Assembly: GCA_003455275.1 (NCBI GenBank)
Contig: DMRR01000019.1
Location: 8,086 to 24,866 of the forward strand
Reading direction: 5' to 3'
Length of the DNA: 16,781 bases
DNA from: Bacteroidota bacterium
GTDB lineage: Bacteria; Bacteroidota; Bacteroidia; Chitinophagales; UBA10324
Made by a program: the position numbers and the translations under genes. The notes beneath the pieces were generated by a model, which was not told the DNA's origin, made no database searches, and saw nothing but the letters and a program-made list of their open reading frames with translations. Numbering within the stretch: position 1 is the first letter of the stretch; each line of letters opens with the position of its first letter. Shown piece after piece: positions 4,376 to 16,672 of the stretch.

Positions 4376-5656
4376 TTAATTCTGTTTCACAAATTTTTTC
4401 ACCCGCTCATTTCCATTATCATCTTTTATTCTCAGGAAATAAATTCCATTGGAGAGATAGCTTATATCAATAGTGGTTAGTGGCTGGAGGTTGGGGGTTG
4501 GAAGTTTCATTTCCCTTCCAAGAATATCTGAAATTGAAATTTCTGTATTTGCTAACCACGAACCACTAACCACTAGCCACCCACTCGTTGGATTGGGATA
4601 AACAGAAAAATTATTTTCATCATTCAAATTATCATCAGTTGAATTGTAGGTGGGATCAATGTTCCAGCCGATGTCTTTTAAAATGGCAAGAGTGATTGGT
4701 CCCGGATTGTGGTTACTGCTATGAGAAGATGCGAAAGGAGTCATCAATTCATTCGGATTTCCAACAGGATAACTTGCTTCATTCAAATGAACCATGCTGC
4801 TTCCGAGAGCAAATGTTGCCGGAGCATAAATGCGAGGAAACTGATTGCCTGCGAAACTGATCCCGTTTGTGCCGCTCCAATAAATTCCGTTGCTCGTAAA
4901 TTCTGAAGCAAGTGTGTCTGATGGATTCGGGAAAGTGGTGAGCAGTGTTGTGTCTGCATTAATCAGGTAATGATCAAACACCCCGGGAAAAGTATCGAGT
5001 TGGGGCCAGGCAAACGAAGTGGTGAGTGGATAGAAATCTGATGCCAGCAGCATTCCAAGCGAACCCAATCCATTTGAAGTGTCAACTTTGCTAAGCCCAA
5101 TGAAACCCAGACCGTGACCCAATTCATGCAACGCGACAGAAACGAAATCATATTTTCCTGCAGGACAATTTCCATCTGTTCCATAATACCAATTGGCAGA
5201 TGCATTCAGATACATGTCCACATCATACTCTCCCGGATTGAGTTCTGTTCCTGCTAATTGGTTGGCGAGCGAAGTTGGATACCACACATCGTTCACTAAT
5301 GCTCCGCTGAAATTTTTTCTGCCATTTGGGAAAGTGATTCCGAGCAAGCCGGTATTTCCCATCGGGATAAAAATTGCATTCACTTTCACATGCTGTGTTC
5401 CATTCAGAATAGATTCCCAAATTGACATCGCATAAGCATACGCATCGTGCGCCTGCGTAGTAAATGCCTGATAGTTTACATCAATTGTAAGACCACGAGA
5501 CCCGCGCCCAAAATTTTCAGGCGGAGGAATTTTTCCATATTCATCTATTCCATTCCCATAACAAGCAATTTTCCATTGAGGCGAACAATTGTTTTGAGCA
5601 AAAACATTTTTAGAAAACGAAATCACAATCACCAAAACGCAGAACAAATATTTCAT
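4376..5656 (-). CDS. Secreted leishmanolysin-like (M8-type) zinc metalloprotease with T9SS type A sorting domain
   Basis: A 426-residue exported protein. The reading frame is open to a TTG at 5677, but ATG 5656 gives a canonical signal peptide (MKYLFCVLVIVISFSKNVFA, cleavage near residue 20) and is preferred. The catalytic part carries HELGHGLGF (177-185), whose two histidines and glutamate fit HExxH. The usual metzincin third ligand three residues after the glycine is missing (G187). Instead H290 in SSMVHLNE is followed by NELMTP with M305 as Met-turn, the arrangement known from leishmanolysins, where a long insert separates HExxHxxGF from the third histidine. Residues 349-426 are a T9SS type A domain: FSVYPNPTSG, ISDILGREM, LSNGIYFLRI and a basic tail. 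Export through the outer membrane and surface attachment or release are therefore expected. The sorting domain contains repeat-derived sequence (see the repeat entry). The substrate is unknown. Confidence 0.85.
   Translation of the reverse strand: MKYLFCVLVIVISFSKNVFAQNNCSPQWKIACYGNGIDEYGKIPPPENFGRGSRGLTIDVNYQAFTTQAHDAYAYAMSIWESILNGTQHVKVNAIFIPMGNTGLLGITFPNGRKNFSGALVNDVWYPTSLANQLAGTELNPGEYDVDMYLNASANWYYGTDGNCPAGKYDFVSVALHELGHGLGFIGLSKVDTSNGLGSLGMLLASDFYPLTTSFAWPQLDTFPGVFDHYLINADTTLLTTFPNPSDTLASEFTSNGIYWSGTNGISFAGNQFPRIYAPATFALGSSMVHLNEASYPVGNPNELMTPFASSHSSNHNPGPITLAILKDIGWNIDPTYNSTDDNLNDENNFSVYPNPTSGWLVVSGSWLANTEISISDILGREMKLPTPNLQPLTTIDISYLSNGIYFLRIKDDNGNERVKKFVKQN
4471..4580. repeat. Two mutually inverted arrays of a 7-nt repeat (TAACCAC / GTGGTTA) inside a coding sequence
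   Basis: On the plus strand 4553-4580 reads as four consecutive heptamers: TAACCAC, GAACCAC, TAACCAC, TAGCCAC. At 4471-4502 the complementary type appears: TAGTGGTTAGTGGCT followed by GGAGG/GGGGGTTGG. A 13-nt stretch, CCACTAACCACTA at 4563-4575, is the exact reverse complement of 4471-4483, with 79 nt between. Both arrays lie in the T9SS sorting domain of the protease gene. In protein they give residues about 359-369 (GWLVVSGSWLA) and 385-395 (LPTPNLQPLTT). The rest of the domain stays in frame and recognisable. Low-complexity C-rich heptamers of this kind look like repeat expansion or insertion; the transcript could fold into a hairpin. Confidence 0.75.
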
Positions 5657-5730
5657 GATGAATAAAATTTTGAGCAATATAAAATGTGTTCCTTTTCAAA
5701 TACAGTTTAGTTTTTGAGGCGAAACCGAAA

Positions 5731-5843: not shown

Positions 5844-8537
5844 ATGAGCAAAATAAGAGTCGGAATATTTTTTGGCGGCAGTTCGCGTGAGCGTGAAATT
5901 TCTTTTGCAGGTGGTAGAACAGTGTATGACAATTTGAATAAAACCCTCTTCGAACCTGTTCCCATTTTTGTTGACTCGTTTCACAATTTCATTCTGCTTG
6001 ATTGGCAGTTCATTTACAAGGGAAGCATTCGCGATTTCTATCCTCCGGTTTCTGCGCTGCCAAATACGAAGCATGCTTTTCAGGTTTACATCGAATCATT
6101 AGGAAATCTTTCTGCAGAAAAACAGAATGAAATTATTTCTCAGGTCGGAAAAAAAATTCTTCCGCATGAGTTGAGTTCGATAATGGATTTTGCCTTTCTC
6201 GCTTTGCATGGTTCGTATGCCGAGGATGGAAGCATTCAGGGATTGCTCGATTTTCATCACATACCTTATTCGGGTTCAGGTGTTCTGCCTTCTGCAATTG
6301 GCATCAACAAAGCGTTTCAGAAGCGTATGATGAATGAGGGTGGTTTCACGCCGACTAAATTCAAAACCATTACTCGCAAAGAGTGGTTGAATGGCGATAA
6401 AAATTCTCTTATAAAAAATTCTGTTGATTCTATTGGAGTTCCGCTTGTTGTAAGACCAGCCAATCAAGGCTCGTCAATTGGAGTTTCTATTATTCATGAA
6501 AATGATTCGGAGAAAATCAAAAGTGCAATTGAGCGCGCTTTCTTTTTCCATGAATGGAAAGCTGATGAGTGGAAGAAAAAAACCAAAGAAGAAAAAATTT
6601 CTCATCTCGCTCACCTGTGTGACATACGAGAAAGTGTTGGCTTGCCTGTTCTTGTTGGGGACAAAAAATATTTTCACCCAGAAGAATTATTTGAACTGTT
6701 TGAATCGTTATCTCAAAAAAATATTTCATCTCTCACACTTGAGGCAGAAGATGCAGAAGTGGAAATTCTTCTCGAAGAATTTATTGAAGGAAAGGAATTC
6801 AGTTGCATTGTACTTGCTGATGAAAATGGGAATCCGGTTGCGCTTCCTCCGACTGAAATAGTGAAAGGAAAAGAAGTGTTCGATTACCGTTCAAAATATC
6901 TCGCAGGGCTTTCTAGAAAAATTACTCCGATACAAATTCCAGACGAACAGATTGAAGCGATTCGAAACGAGTGCGAAAAACTTTTTTCGTTCTTCAGTTT
7001 TCATGTGTATGCCCGCATTGACGGATTCATTCGCAAGGATGGAAAAATTATTCTCAATGATCCGAATACTACAAGCGGAATGTTGCCTTCATCTTTTTTC
7101 TTTCATCAGGCAGCAGAGATTGGATTGAATCCTTCGCAGTTTCTCACTTACATCATTCACACAAGTATTCGTGAGCGAATGCGCACCACAGTGCGACCAT
7201 CACTTTACTCTTCATTGCTCGCGCAAATAAATTCTTCTCTCGAACAATCACTGACAGCGCAAAAGAGCAAACGAAAAATTGCTGTGATACTCGGCGGCTA
7301 CTCAACTGAGCGGCACATCAGCGTGGAGAGTGGGAGAAATATTTATGAAAAACTTGCGAGCAGCGATAAGTATGAACCGATTCCTGTTTTTCTTTTTGGC
7401 AATGATGAACAACATGAATTATATCAAATTCCAATTAATCTTTTGCTGAAGGATAATGCCGATGACATTCGTGAAAAAATTCTTCACTTCAGTTTTCATC
7501 CGGTGATTGAAAAAATAAAGAAGCGCTGCTCGAACATCACTTCAAAATTTTCTTCGAAAAATTATCTCTTCACTCCAAGGAAAATTTCTTACAACGAACT
7601 TCCAGAAATTGTGGAAGGTGTTTTTATCGCCCTGCATGGTCGTCCGGGAGAAGATGGAAGTGTGCAATCACAATTGGAGAAAGTTAGTTTGCCTTACAAT
7701 GGCAGCGGAGTTACTTCCTCTCAAATCACCATCAATAAATTCAACACGAATCAACTGCTGTTGCAAAATGGTTTTCATGAAGCGCAACAAACTCTTGTTC
7801 AGAAAAAGGACTGGAAACACAGTGAAGAAAATTTTCTCTCTAACATTTTATTGAAACACAAACTCCCGCTCATAGCAAAACCGGTGGATGATGGATGCAG
7901 CAGCGCTGTGAAAAAAATTAAAACACGCGAAGAGCTTGCTTCTTTTTCAAGATTGATGTTTCGTGAAGAAGAATTGCTGAATGAAAAAGATGCAGCAGCT
8001 CTGAAACTAAAACCGAAGGAAGAATTTCCGCGCAAGCAGCAATACTTGGTGGAAGATTTGATTTCATCTGAGAAAGCAAATCACTTTTTAGAAATCACTT
8101 GTGGAATGCTCACTCATTTAAATGAAGATGGAAGCATTCGCTACGAAGTGTTTGAACCAAGTGAAACGCTTGCAGGCGCTGATGTGCTTTCACTTGAAGA
8201 AAAATTTCTAGCCGGTGAAGGTCAAAACATAACACCTGCACGCTTTGCAAAATCAAAAAATGATTACGAAGCAATTGCCTCGCAAGTGAAAAAAGATTTG
8301 GAGCGCGCAGCACGATTACTGAATGTGCGCGGCTACTGCCGCATTGATGCATTCGTTCGCATTTACGAAAACAACAAAGCAGAAACTGTGATCATCGAAG
8401 TGAATTCACTTCCGGGAATGACACCTGCAACCTGCATTTTTCATCAGGCGGCAATCAATCATTACAAGCCGTACGAATTCATTGATAAAATTTTAGAATT
8501 TAGCCGCCAGAACCAAAAGCAACACCAGCCGGCATAA
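5844..8537 (+). CDS. Tandem double D-alanine--D-alanine ligase-like protein (two fused ATP-grasp Ddl modules)
   Basis: An 897-residue cytoplasmic protein containing two Ddl-like modules, about 1-450 and 475-890; a usual Ddl has about 310-370 residues. ATG 5844 is preferred over an in-frame TTG at 5835. Ddl ligates two D-alanines with ATP for peptidoglycan. Aligned by eye to E. coli DdlB (E15, K97, K144, S150, E187, K215, Y216, R255, D257, E270, N272), module 1 has E16, K156, R204, S210, E318, K351, Y352, R391, D393, D406 and N408. Its changes are therefore K144 to R and E270 to D. Module 2 has E489, K632, K679, C685, H747, K787, F788, R833, D835, E852 and N854: S150 to C, E187 to H (uncertain, length differs) and Y216 to F, with metal ligands intact. 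Both keep LHGxxxEDG (121-129, 597-605) and GxxxINK. Extra charged helical insertions lie at about 232-306 and 695-732. It probably forms an operon with the PASTA gene 5 nt downstream. Which substrates each half uses is unknown. Confidence 0.85.
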   Translation: MSKIRVGIFFGGSSREREISFAGGRTVYDNLNKTLFEPVPIFVDSFHNFILLDWQFIYKGSIRDFYPPVSALPNTKHAFQVYIESLGNLSAEKQNEIISQVGKKILPHELSSIMDFAFLALHGSYAEDGSIQGLLDFHHIPYSGSGVLPSAIGINKAFQKRMMNEGGFTPTKFKTITRKEWLNGDKNSLIKNSVDSIGVPLVVRPANQGSSIGVSIIHENDSEKIKSAIERAFFFHEWKADEWKKKTKEEKISHLAHLCDIRESVGLPVLVGDKKYFHPEELFELFESLSQKNISSLTLEAEDAEVEILLEEFIEGKEFSCIVLADENGNPVALPPTEIVKGKEVFDYRSKYLAGLSRKITPIQIPDEQIEAIRNECEKLFSFFSFHVYARIDGFIRKDGKIILNDPNTTSGMLPSSFFFHQAAEIGLNPSQFLTYIIHTSIRERMRTTVRPSLYSSLLAQINSSLEQSLTAQKSKRKIAVILGGYSTERHISVESGRNIYEKLASSDKYEPIPVFLFGNDEQHELYQIPINLLLKDNADDIREKILHFSFHPVIEKIKKRCSNITSKFSSKNYLFTPRKISYNELPEIVEGVFIALHGRPGEDGSVQSQLEKVSLPYNGSGVTSSQITINKFNTNQLLLQNGFHEAQQTLVQKKDWKHSEENFLSNILLKHKLPLIAKPVDDGCSSAVKKIKTREELASFSRLMFREEELLNEKDAAALKLKPKEEFPRKQQYLVEDLISSEKANHFLEITCGMLTHLNEDGSIRYEVFEPSETLAGADVLSLEEKFLAGEGQNITPARFAKSKNDYEAIASQVKKDLERAARLLNVRGYCRIDAFVRIYENNKAETVIIEVNSLPGMTPATCIFHQAAINHYKPYEFIDKILEFSRQNQKQHQPA

Positions 8538-8542
8538 TTACC

Positions 8543-9340
8543 ATGTGGCAATTCCTCAAGAGCAGAATTTTTCTTTATAATATACTTGGCATTATTGCAG
8601 CCTACTTCATCGTGTTTTGGCTCACAACTTCGCTGTTGAATAGTTACACACGACACGGCGAAACCATTACGGTGCCTGACATCCGCGGGCTCTCAATTGA
8701 AAAGGCAAAACAAATTTTATCAGAACGCAATTTAGATTTTGCCGTTGCTGATTCTTCATTCAGCGACAAGAAACCAAAACTTGCCGTGCTTGATCAAAGT
8801 CCGATGCCAAATGAAAAAGTGAAAGAAGGAAGAACAATCTATCTCACACTCAATTCGGTGATTCCTCCGCAAGTGAAAATGCCTGATCTCACCGACAACT
8901 CGCTCAAACAAGCGCAAATGGTTTTAGAAAATGTTGGACTTCGTGTCGGGCAATTGATTTACAAACCTGACCTCGCACAGAATGTGGTGCTCGACTGGAT
9001 GAACAAAGGAAAAAAAATCCCGGTGGGACAAAATATAAAGAAAGGAAGTACGATTGATTTAATTCTTGGTGACGGGTTAGGAAATACCGAAGTGGATGTG
9101 CCTGAACTGATTGGTCACTCACTTCGCGAAGTGCGCTTCATACTTGATGCCTCTTCACTCAACCTTGGCGCCGTAATCGCTGACAATACTGTTCGTGGTG
9201 ATTCGCTCGATGCAGTTGTATATAAACAAATGCCTTCTCCTGATGATGTAGATAACAAATTAAACCTCGGAGAAGCAGTGGATGTATATATTACAAAGGA
9301 TCAGTCAAAAGTTATATCAGGAGGAAATGATGATCAGTAA
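8543..9340 (+). CDS. Membrane-anchored protein with three PASTA domains
   Basis: A 265-residue protein with a short cytoplasmic N-terminus, one transmembrane helix (about 12-33) and three PASTA repeats outside the membrane, about 40-104 (VPDIRGLSIEKAKQIL), 109-175 (MPDLTDNSLKQAQMVL) and 181-251 (VPELIGHSLREVRFIL). PASTA domains are known from penicillin-binding proteins and Ser/Thr kinases, where they bind muropeptides or fragments of peptidoglycan. No kinase or transpeptidase domain is present, so a binding or scaffold role at the cell wall is the safest inference. It starts 5 nt after the tandem ligase stop, strongly suggesting co-transcription and a shared job in peptidoglycan. In many Bacteroidota such a gene sits between ddl and an rluD-type pseudouridine synthase; here no rluD follows and the gene ends 2 nt from the convergent dapA. 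Confidence 0.9.
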   Translation: MWQFLKSRIFLYNILGIIAAYFIVFWLTTSLLNSYTRHGETITVPDIRGLSIEKAKQILSERNLDFAVADSSFSDKKPKLAVLDQSPMPNEKVKEGRTIYLTLNSVIPPQVKMPDLTDNSLKQAQMVLENVGLRVGQLIYKPDLAQNVVLDWMNKGKKIPVGQNIKKGSTIDLILGDGLGNTEVDVPELIGHSLREVRFILDASSLNLGAVIADNTVRGDSLDAVVYKQMPSPDDVDNKLNLGEAVDVYITKDQSKVISGGNDDQ

Positions 9341-10235: not shown

Positions 10236-10757
10236 TTAGACGATGTGTAAATAGTGCTTCACCTGTTCAGTGAATTTTGGAAGATTGTTTTTCCCCTTAA
10301 GGTCAATCATGAAATCGTAACAGAATAATTTATTAGGATTATAAAGCCCAATGCGATAGGAAGCATTGGAAAGAGCAGATATATATTCAAGAGGCAGATT
10401 CTCTGAAACACTTACATTAATCAGTATGTCAAATTTTTTTTCTATGAATTCTTTAACCAAAATTCCATTAGGTTCAAGATACCAGTTCAGGCTTTTTTGA
10501 TTGAAATATGGAAAGTTAAAGTTGATGGCAGGTCGGGGGAAATTATAAAATCCGAACATTGAAATTTTTTTCTTAGTGCCACGAAGTGAATCTGCAAACT
10601 GATTTACCACAGCAGTTTGATCGGTGTCAGTTGCATCGAATATGATTCCAATTTCTTTTGCTTCTTCAAATTTCACAATCTGACGAGGAGGCTTATGAAA
10701 TTTGAGTTCCTTATTCAGGAAGTAATAGTGAAACCATTTTTTTATTTTCCGAATCAT
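10236..10757 (-). CDS. Conserved hypothetical protein, DUF6913-like, of the Bacteroidota
   Basis: A 173-residue protein without signal peptide or membrane segment. The basic, aromatic N-terminus (IRKIKKWFHYYFLNKEL) is followed by a compact alpha/beta body. EIGIIFDATD (about 36-45) looks like a first beta-strand with acidic loop, KKISMFGFYNF a second, and FDILINVSVSENLPLEYISALSNASYRIGLYN (about 109-140) a third strand with following helix. It resembles the DUF6913 family of short Bacteroidota proteins; I assign this from memory of the sequence pattern, not a search. It sits between accA (19 nt upstream) and dapA (11 nt downstream) and is almost certainly co-transcribed. No catalytic motif is evident, so no function is proposed. 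Confidence 0.85.
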   Translation of the reverse strand: MIRKIKKWFHYYFLNKELKFHKPPRQIVKFEEAKEIGIIFDATDTDQTAVVNQFADSLRGTKKKISMFGFYNFPRPAINFNFPYFNQKSLNWYLEPNGILVKEFIEKKFDILINVSVSENLPLEYISALSNASYRIGLYNPNKLFCYDFMIDLKGKNNLPKFTEQVKHYLHIV

Positions 10758-13048: not shown

Positions 13049-15457
13049 ATGAAACTCTATCCGGCCATTTTATTTATTTTTCTTTCCACGCTTTGCCAAG
13101 CCCAAAAGCAAGCAAACAACTGGTATTTCGGAAATAAAGCCGGACTAAATTTCAACGGTGCAAATCCAGTAGCGATTGGAACCGGCCAATTGAATAATCA
13201 GGAAGGTTGCAGTGGATTCAGCGATCCGCACACCGGTCAATTGCTTTTTTATACTGAAGGAGATACTGTTTGGAACCGAAACAACCAGGTAATGCCTAAT
13301 GGGCATTGGTTAGGTGGGTGCTATTCTTCAACACAGGGTGCGCTTGCAGTGCCTCGGCCGGGTTCGACATCTCAATACTACATTTTTACAGTTGGCGCTT
13401 GGGCGGGAATGGATACAAGCGAAGGAAGTTTTAAATTAAACCTGCTCGACATGACACTCGATGGCGGACTTGGTGATGTAACGGTGAAAAATCAAACTGT
13501 ATTGACTCCGGTGTGCGAAAAGCTTACTGCCACACTGGACTGCAATGGCGTGGATTACTGGGTTGTGGTTCATAAGTGGAATTCAAGTGATTTTTATTCA
13601 TACAAGCTGACTAATGCTGGCCTTAGTTCAACTCCTGTGATTTCTGCAATTGGGTCTTTTCATACTGATACAACTGGAGGAAACGGATTTGAAGCAATAG
13701 GCGCAATGAAAATTTCTCCTGATGGAAAAAAAATTGCCCTTGTTACTCATACAAACTTTTCGCGGATGGAGTTATTTGATTTTGATAACAGCACTGGAAT
13801 TATTTCGAACGCAGTAATTGACTCCAATTATTCATTTACCGGCAACACCGGACTATATGGACTATCATTCTCCCCTGATAATTCTAAATTGTATGTGAGT
13901 ATTGTAGGAAATGGAACTCAATCAATCGGAAATGTACCGAGTGAAATTCTGCAATACGATTTAAGTTCAGGTGTGGCATCAACCATCATTGCATCAAGAA
14001 CACAAATTCATTCTTCAACTACCGACAGAATCGGCAACTTACAACTATGCACCAATGGAAAAATTTATGTAGCAAAAGCAAGCAGCCCGAAACTTGATGT
14101 AATTGTTAATCCAAATAATAATGGGCTGGGTTGTACTTATGTTGCCAATGGAATACAGCAGGGAAACAGCCAAGGTCAGCACTTCAGTTCATTTGGTCTT
14201 CCAAATTTTGTAGAGTTATATAACACACCTACAGAATTTAAACTAACATATAATGGTTGCGGAGGAACTTATACAGTTTCGGTATTAGATACTGTAATTC
14301 CACTTCCGGTCACCGTTCTCTGGAACTTCGGCGACCCGGCTTCAGGTGCAAATAATAGTTCCAACCTTTTCCATCCGACTCATACCTTTTCAACCTTAGG
14401 TACTTATACAATTACACTTACCATTAATGCGGGATGTATGAATTTCAATTACACTTCGCAGATTGATATGACAGATAGTTTTCAAGTAGATTATGGGCCT
14501 GATTTGATAGTCTGCACCGGCAACTCTGTTCAGCTCAATAATTCTTATAATTATGGATTAAATTATGTTTGGACGCCTGCCTCAAACCTGAGTTGCACTA
14601 ATTGTCCGGATCCGGTGGCTTCACCCATTGATACAATTACATACATAGTTAGTATTGATGATGGCCCCGGTTGTCATGATGAAGATACAATCACAATTAA
14701 TTTACTAAGTGGTGTTGTTGGTATGGTTGTTCCTGATACTAGTATTTGTCCCGGAAATTCAGTGCAACTTATTGCAAGCGGAGGAGTGAATTATTCATGG
14801 GTAAATGAACCAACACTCAGCGCATGGAATATTTCAAACCCGATAGCAACACCTACATCAAATACAACTTATGAAGTCATTGTTTCAATTCCAGGATGCA
14901 CACCGGATACAGTTTCTGTGACAGTAGATGTTCTTTCATTTCCTGCAATTGATGCTGGTCCGGATTTAACAATTCTCACTGGAAACAGCGCGCTTATTGA
15001 AGCAACTTCTGATGGAGCATCGTGGATTTGGAATCCCGGTTATGGATTAGATGATTCAACCATACTGCAACCTACTGCTTCTCCCACGACTACAACAACC
15101 TACACCATAACTGCAGATAACGGACTCGGATGTCTTGCTGTTGATTCAGTGGTAGTTTTTGTTAATCCCGGAGAGTTGCCTTTGCTTTTTTTTCCTAATG
15201 CTTTTACTCCAAATGGCGATGGCAACAATGATTTGTTTGATTACTTCAATTTTGGTTTTGAAAAAGTGTGGCTCCGCATTTACAACCGATGGGGACAATT
15301 AATTTATGAAACGGATTTGCCACACGATGGCTGGGATGGTATGGTTGATGATGCCTTGCCTGCAGCCATGGGCGTATATGTCTATTATGCAATTGCCACT
15401 TCTTCCTCTAGAAATTTCACACAGACTTACAAAGGAAACTTCACTTTGATTCGCTAG
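13049..15457 (+). CDS. Secreted multidomain protein: beta-propeller-like, PKD, three Ig-like domains and T9SS type B sorting domain
   Basis: An 802-residue exported protein. ATG 13049 opens a signal peptide (MKLYPAILFIFLSTLCQAQ, cleavage near residue 19). Residues about 20-390 are a repetitive beta-rich domain with WYFGNKAGLNF, blade-like motifs such as MKISPDGKKIALV (220-232) and LSFSPDNSKLYVS (272-284), and NGKIYVA (336-342), suggesting a propeller. A PKD domain follows (about 405-475: VLWNFGDP, HTFSTLGTYTITLTI). Then come three related Ig-like domains starting DYGPDLIVCTGNSVQL (481), VPDTSICPGNSVQL (561) and DAGPDLTILTGNSALI (635). The end (about 712-802) is a T9SS type B / gliding-motility-associated domain: FFPNAFTPNGDGNNDLF, IYNRWGQLIYE, GWDG, GVYVYY, YKGNFTLIR. 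It is therefore expected on or outside the cell surface. Adhesion or polymer binding is possible; no catalytic motif is seen. The next gene is a paralogue of its N-terminal half. Confidence 0.9.
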   Translation: MKLYPAILFIFLSTLCQAQKQANNWYFGNKAGLNFNGANPVAIGTGQLNNQEGCSGFSDPHTGQLLFYTEGDTVWNRNNQVMPNGHWLGGCYSSTQGALAVPRPGSTSQYYIFTVGAWAGMDTSEGSFKLNLLDMTLDGGLGDVTVKNQTVLTPVCEKLTATLDCNGVDYWVVVHKWNSSDFYSYKLTNAGLSSTPVISAIGSFHTDTTGGNGFEAIGAMKISPDGKKIALVTHTNFSRMELFDFDNSTGIISNAVIDSNYSFTGNTGLYGLSFSPDNSKLYVSIVGNGTQSIGNVPSEILQYDLSSGVASTIIASRTQIHSSTTDRIGNLQLCTNGKIYVAKASSPKLDVIVNPNNNGLGCTYVANGIQQGNSQGQHFSSFGLPNFVELYNTPTEFKLTYNGCGGTYTVSVLDTVIPLPVTVLWNFGDPASGANNSSNLFHPTHTFSTLGTYTITLTINAGCMNFNYTSQIDMTDSFQVDYGPDLIVCTGNSVQLNNSYNYGLNYVWTPASNLSCTNCPDPVASPIDTITYIVSIDDGPGCHDEDTITINLLSGVVGMVVPDTSICPGNSVQLIASGGVNYSWVNEPTLSAWNISNPIATPTSNTTYEVIVSIPGCTPDTVSVTVDVLSFPAIDAGPDLTILTGNSALIEATSDGASWIWNPGYGLDDSTILQPTASPTTTTTYTITADNGLGCLAVDSVVVFVNPGELPLLFFPNAFTPNGDGNNDLFDYFNFGFEKVWLRIYNRWGQLIYETDLPHDGWDGMVDDALPAAMGVYVYYAIATSSSRNFTQTYKGNFTLIR

Positions 15458-15517
15458 TGTGAATATGTGAGTGACTTAAAGCTTCGCTCACTAATAGCAC
15501 CATTTACATTTATCGCG

Positions 15518-16672
15518 ATGCAAAAATTTTTTCTTTTCCGAAATCCTTTTCTAACTATTCTCTTATCGGTTTCTTTTTATTCAACTAAATCATTTGGTCA
15601 AAAGGAAGCTTCTATCTGGTTCTTTGGAAATGAATGTGCCATTGATTTTTCCTATTCATATCCTGTGGCCGTAACTGTAAGTGCCATGAAAACAGATGAA
15701 GGCAGCACCAGCATGTGCAATAGCGGCGGTTGGCTTCAGTTTTATACAAATGGAGCTGCAGTTTGGAATAAAAATCATCAGATCATGCCACATGGCAAAA
15801 TGTTGAAAGGACATGTATCTTCTTCACAATCTGCATTGGCCGTACCTAATCCCGGTAATCCCAATATTATTTATCTCTTTACATCAGACGCAGGTGCATA
15901 CGCCGATCCTCCCAATGTGGGAGTAAATTATTATACCATTGACATGACACTTGATAAAGGAAAAGGCGATATAAAAGGAAAAGAGGTTCAGTTGGTGCCC
16001 AATGCCTGTGAAAAACTAACTGCTGTGAAACATAAAAATGGAAAAGATGTATGGGTAATGGCGCACGGTTGGTGCACACAAAATTTTTATTGCTACCTGG
16101 TAACGAAGGATGGGGTTTCTAAAATTCCGGTGATGAGTAAAATAGGTAGTATTCACTGTGGAGGAAACACAACCGATGGTAACGGAATTGGATATATGAA
16201 ATTTTCTCCTGACGGAAGCAAGCTCGCTGCAGTTATTTATCAGAATAATTTTTGGGAGCTTTATGATTTCAATAATGAAACCGGAACACTAAGTAATTAT
16301 CGAGTCATCTATACACCGCAAGATAAACTTGGCTATGGATGTGAGTTTTCACCGAATGGAAAACTCTTTTACATCAGTTTTTATTTTACGAACGAGGTTT
16401 ATCAATACGATGTATCATTTAATAACACAGCCGACCTAATGAGCTCAGCTGTGCTGGTAGTTCAAAGTCTCGATAAAAAAATGGGAGCACTGCAGAATGC
16501 AATTGATGGAAAAATTTATGTGACAAAGAACAGCGAGTATCTAGGATGTATTCCCAATCCGAATGTAAAAGGAACCGGTTGCGGATATATAGAAGATGCG
16601 CTCTACCTCAATGGAGGCAAACCAAAACTCGGTTTGCCAAATTATATCACCAGCTATTTTTTCCGACAGTAA
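15518..16672 (+). CDS. Secreted beta-propeller-like protein, paralogue of the preceding gene without a sorting domain
   Basis: A 384-residue protein. The frame is open to a GTG at 15467, but ATG 15518 yields a proper signal peptide (MQKFFLFRNPFLTILLSVSFYSTKSFGQ) and is chosen. The mature part aligns by eye with residues 20-390 of the upstream protein. Pairs include WFFGNECAIDF with WYFGNKAGLNF, AVWNKNHQIMPHG with TVWNRNNQVMPNG, the shared SALAVP/GALAVP, DMTLDKGKGD with DMTLDGGLGD, ACEKLTAV with VCEKLTAT, and MKFSPDGSKLA with MKISPDGKKIA. It stops in FGLPNF/LGLPNY-equivalent sequence at the end of the propeller. PKD, Ig-like and T9SS domains are absent. It follows its paralogue by 60 nt, so tandem duplication and co-transcription are likely. 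Without a sorting domain it may stay in the periplasm or associate with its neighbour. The function is unknown. Confidence 0.85.
   Translation: MQKFFLFRNPFLTILLSVSFYSTKSFGQKEASIWFFGNECAIDFSYSYPVAVTVSAMKTDEGSTSMCNSGGWLQFYTNGAAVWNKNHQIMPHGKMLKGHVSSSQSALAVPNPGNPNIIYLFTSDAGAYADPPNVGVNYYTIDMTLDKGKGDIKGKEVQLVPNACEKLTAVKHKNGKDVWVMAHGWCTQNFYCYLVTKDGVSKIPVMSKIGSIHCGGNTTDGNGIGYMKFSPDGSKLAAVIYQNNFWELYDFNNETGTLSNYRVIYTPQDKLGYGCEFSPNGKLFYISFYFTNEVYQYDVSFNNTADLMSSAVLVVQSLDKKMGALQNAIDGKIYVTKNSEYLGCIPNPNVKGTGCGYIEDALYLNGGKPKLGLPNYITSYFFRQ

What the first reader, a model, noticed from the sequence alone, without database searches (positions are those of the whole stretch)
5844..8537. Two complete D-Ala-D-Ala ligase modules fused in one 897-residue protein, each with different active-site losses
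The sequence shows two full Ddl-like ATP-grasp modules in tandem, each with GGxSxE, HGxxxEDG, GxxxINK, xKP/xRP, RID and (E/D)xN motifs. By eye alignment to E. coli DdlB, module 1 keeps the E15-S150-Y216 triad (E16, S210, Y352) but has R204 for K144 and D406 for E270. Module 2 keeps K679, E852 and N854 but has C685 and F788 in the triad and probably H747 for E187. The losses fall at different positions in the two halves. That fits divided labour, a catalytic half with a regulatory half, or two ligases of different specificity joined to channel product. I do not know whether this architecture has been described.
Basis: partly seen in the sequence, partly recalled or inferred. Interest (0 to 1): 0.78.

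Follow-up and report, generated by a model that had tools for sequence, protein, structure and literature searches.

The report
Two-module D-Ala-D-Ala ligase, sole copy
Many bacteria of the Bacteroidota group appear to make an essential cell-wall building block with a double-length enzyme, two fused and differently specialised copies of an enzyme that is normally single, which the searches made here did not find described.

Summary
The 897-residue ORF (window 5844-8537) is two complete D-Ala-D-Ala ligase (Ddl) modules. It is neither decay nor an assembly error: it belongs to a large Bacteroidota family. In the 120 homologues aligned, half 1 Asp406 and half 2 Cys685 and Phe788 are each 120 of 120. 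Of 148 class-level genomes, 70 carry the double gene, 78 a single Ddl, and none has both. Eight cultured strains (Pontibacter, Rufibacter, Rhodocytophaga) have only the double gene. The halves form two clades apart from single Ddls, so one old fusion is likely. In one family, both active sites are intact where no single Ddl is found (23 of 23) and degraded where a canonical one is present (5 of 5), with one ambiguous exception and few independent events. Best reading: it is the cell's own Ddl, a covalent two-site enzyme. Half 1 is the likelier D-Ala-D-Ala former; half 2 carries the Tyr-to-Phe switch known from D-Ala-D-Lac ligases, so its chemistry is open. Relatives often sit beside, or are fused to, a membrane PASTA protein.

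The parts
5844..8537 (+). CDS of the two-module Ddl, 897 aa
5844..7193 (+). half 1 (residues 1-450), Ddl module with canonical E-S-Y triad and Asp406 for E270
6453..6455 (+). codon of Arg204 (K144 of E. coli DdlB; 63 Lys and 57 Arg in 120 homologues)
6549..6755 (+). insert in the half 1 ATP-grasp lid region (residues 236-304), poorly conserved: 2 of 69 columns invariant
7059..7061 (+). codon of Asp406 (E270 of DdlB; 120 of 120)
7194..7262 (+). linker, residues 451-473, 0 of 23 columns invariant
7263..8534 (+). half 2 (residues 474-897), Ddl module with E-C-F triad
7896..7898 (+). codon of Cys685 (S150 of DdlB; 120 of 120)
8091..8093 (+). codon of Glu750 (E187 of DdlB; 120 of 120)
8205..8207 (+). 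codon of Phe788 (Y216 of DdlB; 120 of 120)
8543..9340 (+). PASTA-domain protein with an N-terminal hydrophobic stretch, starting 5 bases after the tandem gene; fused to it in some relatives

Best explanation
The gene encodes the organism's only D-Ala-D-Ala ligase, in a form in which two Ddl modules are fused in one chain and have specialised. The fusion is old and probably happened once in Bacteroidota. Both halves keep the ATP-grasp and metal machinery, and both are kept strictly while the protein is the cell's sole Ddl. Half 1, with the canonical triad, most probably makes D-Ala-D-Ala. Half 2, with Cys and Phe in the triad, is probably also an ATP-using ligase site with altered handling of the second substrate; the two may form an intramolecular counterpart of the Ddl dimer. 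Shown by computation: architecture, fold, fixed residues, sole-copy status in the genomes examined, decay of both halves beside a canonical Ddl. Inferred: enzyme activity, the role of each half, the pseudo-dimer.
For: Both halves have Ddl domains and fold. ATP and metal residues and the three unusual residues are invariant in 120 of 120 homologues, with Lys or Arg at 204; conservation is alike in the two halves (114 of 450 and 111 of 417 columns invariant, linker 0 of 23). Double gene and single Ddl exclude each other: 31 double, 27 single, 2 none of 60; 70 double, 78 single, 0 both of 148; 8 of 8 cultured strains. TIGR01205 found no other strong Ddl in 14 double-gene genomes. In one family 23 of 23 genomes with an intact tandem lack a single Ddl, 5 of 5 with a degraded one have a canonical Ddl of at least three types, each with 15 of 15 canonical residues. 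MurF, which uses the product, matches in 18 of 18 tandem genomes, 17 over the cut-off. The PASTA neighbour is shared with single-Ddl loci (9 of 18).
Against: No activity data. The decay cases are few and mostly one clade, so no statistics are possible. G395 has a degraded half 2 and no single Ddl found (83% complete). In G384 the Ddl part is barely recognisable. Half 2 lacks the Ser and Tyr of the triad that all 42 single Ddls aligned have, so it may not ligate. Sole-copy claims rest partly on incomplete genomes and on capped lists.
Confidence: 0.72

Rival explanations
1. Half 1 is the only ligase; half 2 is a regulatory or structural partner that binds ATP or another ligand and controls or props up half 1.
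For: Half 1 keeps the canonical triad, half 2 has Cys and Phe in it. In G395 half 1 is nearly intact (1 of 15 changed) while half 2 has 5 of 15 changed, with no single Ddl found.
Against: Half 2 keeps R255, D257, E270, N272, K144, K215 and E187 equivalents in 120 of 120, more than ATP binding alone should need (inference); half 1, not half 2, departs at E270, P275 and K144.
Confidence: 0.3
2. Half 2 is a D-Ala-D-X or depsipeptide (for example D-Ala-D-Lac) ligase, half 1 a D-Ala-D-Ala ligase: two specificities in one chain.
For: Phe at the Y216 position decides for depsipeptide activity in lactic acid bacteria (PMC5996685, abstract and passages); half 2 has Phe in 120 of 120, and its best sequence match among solved structures is 1iow, the Y216F form of DdlB.
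Against: Half 2 also has Cys for S150 and Thr for S281, a combination none of the 42 single Ddls aligned shows. The whole protein is far below the NCBIfam D-Ala-D-Lac cut-off (188 against 550 bits). Canonical Ddls appear to replace the tandem, which argues against a needed second product.
Confidence: 0.17
3. The tandem is not a Ddl but another ATP-grasp ligase (other substrates) that happens to lie at the ddl locus.
For: Both halves have fixed departures from single Ddls; no NCBIfam equivalog or exception model among the 25 shown reaches its cut-off.
Against: No other Ddl was found in the double-gene genomes although MurF is there; it decays beside a canonical Ddl.
Confidence: 0.06
4. Pseudogene, chimera or frameshift artefact joining two genes.
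For: No result supports it.
Confidence: 0.01

Closest known systems
Single-module D-Ala-D-Ala ligase (Ddl: E. coli DdlA and DdlB; PF01820 + PF07478, TIGR01205)
   Same: Fold, domains, ATP and metal residues in both halves, place beside a PASTA gene in part of Bacteroidota, and apparent interchange with it between genomes
   Different: Two modules in one chain; half 1 Asp for E270, Ser for P275, Lys or Arg for K144; half 2 Cys for S150, Phe for Y216, Thr for S281; separate clades
Depsipeptide ligases with Phe in the active site (Leuconostoc LmDdl2, 1ehi; many Lactobacillus Ddl, PMC5996685)
   Same: Phe at the Tyr216 position in half 2
   Different: Half 2 also has Cys and Thr changes; it is fused to a Tyr-type half; activity unknown
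MurC-Ddl fusion (PRK14573, NF011171; known from Chlamydia, recalled)
   Same: A Ddl module in a larger wall enzyme
   Different: No MurC domain here; 178 bits against a cut-off of 1015. Some sources still name the relatives MurC
Carbamoyl phosphate synthetase large subunit
   Same: Two ATP-grasp units in one chain with different jobs
   Different: Not the same family; Foldseek rank 49 with TM 0.43 over the query (1m6v_A); no shared intermediate is known for the tandem Ddl

Membership tests
Ddl (D-Ala-D-Ala ligase) | Ddl N- and C-terminal domains | tested here: met
   PF01820 and PF07478 match in both halves
Ddl (D-Ala-D-Ala ligase) | Ddl fold | tested here: met
Ddl (D-Ala-D-Ala ligase) | ATP, metal and transition-state residues (K144, E180, E187, K215, R255, D257, E270, N272) | tested here: met
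   All in half 2; in half 1 with Asp for E270 and Arg or Lys for K144
Ddl (D-Ala-D-Ala ligase) | E15-S150-Y216 triad in half 1 | tested here: met
   E16, S210, Y352, 120 of 120 each
Ddl (D-Ala-D-Ala ligase) | E15-S150-Y216 triad in half 2 | tested here: not met
   E489 kept, C685 and F788 in 120 of 120
Ddl (D-Ala-D-Ala ligase) | One module of about 300-400 aa | tested here: not met
   Two modules, 897 aa
Ddl (D-Ala-D-Ala ligase) | Being the genome's Ddl | tested here: met
   No other found in the double-gene genomes
Ddl (D-Ala-D-Ala ligase) | D-Ala-D-Ala synthesis | not testable with these tools
   Needs an enzyme assay
D-Ala-D-Lac ligase | Phe for Tyr at the Y216 position | tested here: met
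   Half 2 F788, 120 of 120; half 1 has Tyr
D-Ala-D-Lac ligase | NCBIfam NF000206 cut-off | tested here: not met
   188.1 against 550 bits
D-Ala-D-Lac ligase | Depsipeptide synthesis | not testable with these tools
   Needs an enzyme assay
MurC-Ddl fusion | NF011171 cut-off | tested here: not met
   178 against 1015 bits; no MurC domain

The most novel reading that the evidence does not exclude
The two halves do different chemistry in one essential enzyme: half 1 makes D-Ala-D-Ala, and half 2 runs a second ligation (D-Ala-D-X or a depsipeptide) or gates half 1 through its own ATP cycle; the PASTA partner, fused to it in some lineages, couples this cytoplasmic step to the state of the wall outside. 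A large part of Bacteroidota would then have an unrecognised form of the Ddl step.
Probability: 0.2. Interest if true: 0.85.

Novelty: new variant of a known kind. Interest (0 to 1): 0.64.

Why it matters
Ddl is a textbook enzyme of wall synthesis and a target of D-cycloserine (abstract of PMC5717164, listing). About half of the class-level genomes sampled (70 of 148) seem to rely on a fused form with fixed, non-standard active sites, and the literature listings made here show no description. It makes testable why two modules are kept, in cultured genera such as Pontibacter; genomes with a canonical Ddl and a degraded tandem are natural replacement cases. Sources name it inconsistently (Ddl, MurC, hypothetical protein, PASTA protein).

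Tried and rejected
H747 as the E187 equivalent: rejected. Two MurF copies as partners of two Ddl halves: two strong matches (frames of 424-514 and 803-847 aa) also occur in 18 of 18 single-Ddl genomes, so no link. PF07478 hits elsewhere in the own genome: one PurT-like and one PurD-like, by eye; the third, under the cut-off, lies in an 879-aa frame that also matches the MurF model, perhaps cyanophycin-synthetase-like (inference). Free-standing half 2: of 120 listed proteins 107 reach into half 1 and 13 begin near half 2; none was confirmed as a separate gene and contig ends were not checked one by one. Vancomycin susceptibility of tandem-only genera as a test for D-Ala-D-Lac: nothing useful in three listings. 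Fisher-type statistics on the decay pattern: not used, as the events are not independent. Dimer-like packing of the halves: not tested, as no coordinates were given.

Novelty searches, listings only; none described a two-module Ddl. The library lacks most subscription journals and no preprint server is held.

Full report

Active sites. On an alignment of 35 split tandem proteins and 42 single Ddls with E. coli DdlB as ruler, half 1 has E16, S210 and Y352 for E15, S150 and Y216; Asp406 for E270; Arg204 for K144; Ser for P275; Phe for L282. Half 2 has E489, C685 and F788 for the triad; Leu for Y210 and Y212; Thr863 for S281; Cys for L282; and keeps K144, E180, E187 (as E750), K215, R255, D257, E270 and N272. 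In the 120 listed homologues (885-927 aa) D406, C685 and F788 are invariant and position 204 is 63 Lys and 57 Arg. A second set of 120 proteins, found with half 2 alone and mostly partial, again has C685 and F788 in 120 of 120. All 42 single Ddls have the canonical residues at S150, Y216 and E270. Of the 35 tandems in that alignment two triple fusions, P0139 and P0160, are degraded. One locus, L092, could not be split and was left out.

How common. A search of about 5.8 billion proteins gave 4782 relatives at E up to 0.001 among the 7995 candidates scored; 120 were listed and used.

Sole copy. In the own genome (80% complete) the only PF01820 matches are the two halves. Of 60 genomes (own included) 31 have two matches, 27 one and 2 none; the two without are 72% and 57% complete. 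In one of the 31 (G024) the two matches lie on different contigs and are unresolved. Of 148 genomes of the class (own included) 72 have two matches. In two of these the matches look like pieces of one domain in a single-length frame (G108, both seen; G104, one of the two seen), which leaves 70 with the double gene and 78 with a single Ddl; none has three matches. Of the 69 others than the own genome, 66 show a match in a frame of 865 aa or more and three (G224, G242, G257) are shorter or split over contigs; the list was truncated, so not every second match was seen. Eight of 8 cultured strains have two matches in one frame of 898-933 aa. A search of 14 double-gene genomes with TIGR01205 listed the tandem first and then weaker matches (56 bits or less) outside it, which by frame length look like other ATP-grasp proteins (truncated list; their identity is inferred).

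Origin. In a quick tree of 112 rows half 1 and half 2 each form one group (SH-aLRT 99 and 100) and the single Ddls a third (92), with similar order inside the two halves. This fits one fusion followed by joint descent. The program warned that long branches meet between the groups, so whether the halves are sisters is open.

Natural replacement. In one family of the same order (61 genomes; 63 with two added) I count 30 genomes with a full, partial or remnant tandem. Comparing 15 active-site positions per half: 23 are intact in both halves, and none of these 23 has a single Ddl (G394 has a third PF01820 match, part of a second tandem at a contig end, in a 9.1 Mb assembly with 4% contamination). 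Five are degraded in both halves (G337, G354, G356, G384, G391), and all five also have a single Ddl with 15 of 15 canonical residues. In G384 the Ddl part is barely recognisable and only the PASTA part matched; counting it is a judgement. The five single Ddls are of at least three types: those of G337, G354 and G384 are 61-64% alike, those of G356 and G391 27-31% alike to the others and to each other. G363 is cut by a contig end. G395 is an exception: half 1 with one change, half 2 with five, no single Ddl found, assembly 83% complete. In the tree the degraded sequences mostly form one clade and G384 cannot be placed, so only two or three independent contrasts exist and no statistical claim is made. 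Still, the pattern is what one expects if the tandem does the job of a Ddl and both sites matter for it.

PASTA link. The next gene, 5 bases on, encodes a PASTA protein. Among 80 tandem loci a PASTA gene lies downstream within 900 bases in 49, is fused in 3, flanks are too short in 3 and none is seen in 25. In single-Ddl loci 9 of 18 have one next door, three of them divergently. A search with the C-terminal part of one fusion gave 79 proteins, 70 of them at least 1150 aa, one named from Lewinella sp. W8. Of these 79, 53 are intact in both halves, 25 have two or more changes in both halves and 1 is truncated (which also counted 3 references as intact); some of the 25 are shorter proteins in which no Ddl part is recognised. 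A PASTA protein tied to the Ddl step suggests a link between wall state and precursor supply; this is inference.

Mechanism. One residue, Phe or Tyr, decides between depsipeptide and dipeptide ligase activity in lactic acid bacteria (PMC5996685; abstract and passages seen). By sequence the best solved match of half 2 is 1iow, the Y216F form of DdlB. So the changes in half 2 need not inactivate it. Asp for Glu in half 1 can still bind metal (inference). MurF matches in 18 of 18 tandem genomes tested, 17 over the cut-off, so the product has a user; two MurF matches are general and not tied to the tandem. The best-supported view is a covalent two-site Ddl with specialised halves; which half does what is not shown.

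Novelty. Six literature listings found no description, in a library without most subscription journals. The sequences are deposited under various names. I rate it a new variant of a known enzyme.

Noticed in passing
L055, L080 (complete) and L077 (runs to the contig end): Triple fusions Ddl-Ddl-membrane stretch-PASTA of about 1250-1280 aa; 70 of 79 proteins found with the C-terminal part are at least 1150 aa.
   Followed up: partly
L188, L190, L203, L205, L218: Degraded tandem-PASTA genes in genomes that also hold a canonical Ddl; what the degraded protein still does is unknown.
   Followed up: partly
P0188, P0190, P0194, P0198: Proteins of 797-861 aa with only a PASTA domain recognised and an N-terminal part that hardly aligns with the tandem.
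   Followed up: no
window 13049-15457 and 15467-16672, + strand: Two neighbouring ORFs with similar N-terminal regions by eye, the first ending in a CHU_C type IX secretion domain with PKD domains.
   Followed up: no
window 4376-5677, - strand: Secreted protein with a type IX sorting tail and an HExxH-like stretch by eye, so perhaps a metalloprotease.
   Followed up: no
window 10236-10757, - strand: DUF6913 protein next to a dapA-like gene (dapA by eye).
   Followed up: no
genome G382: Two PF01820 matches in two single-length frames (332 and 368 aa), one beside the PASTA frame.
   Followed up: no
public annotations of relatives: Several tandem proteins are named UDP-N-acetylmuramate--alanine ligase (MurC) by one source; the precomputed Pfam domains shown include no MurC domain.
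   Followed up: no
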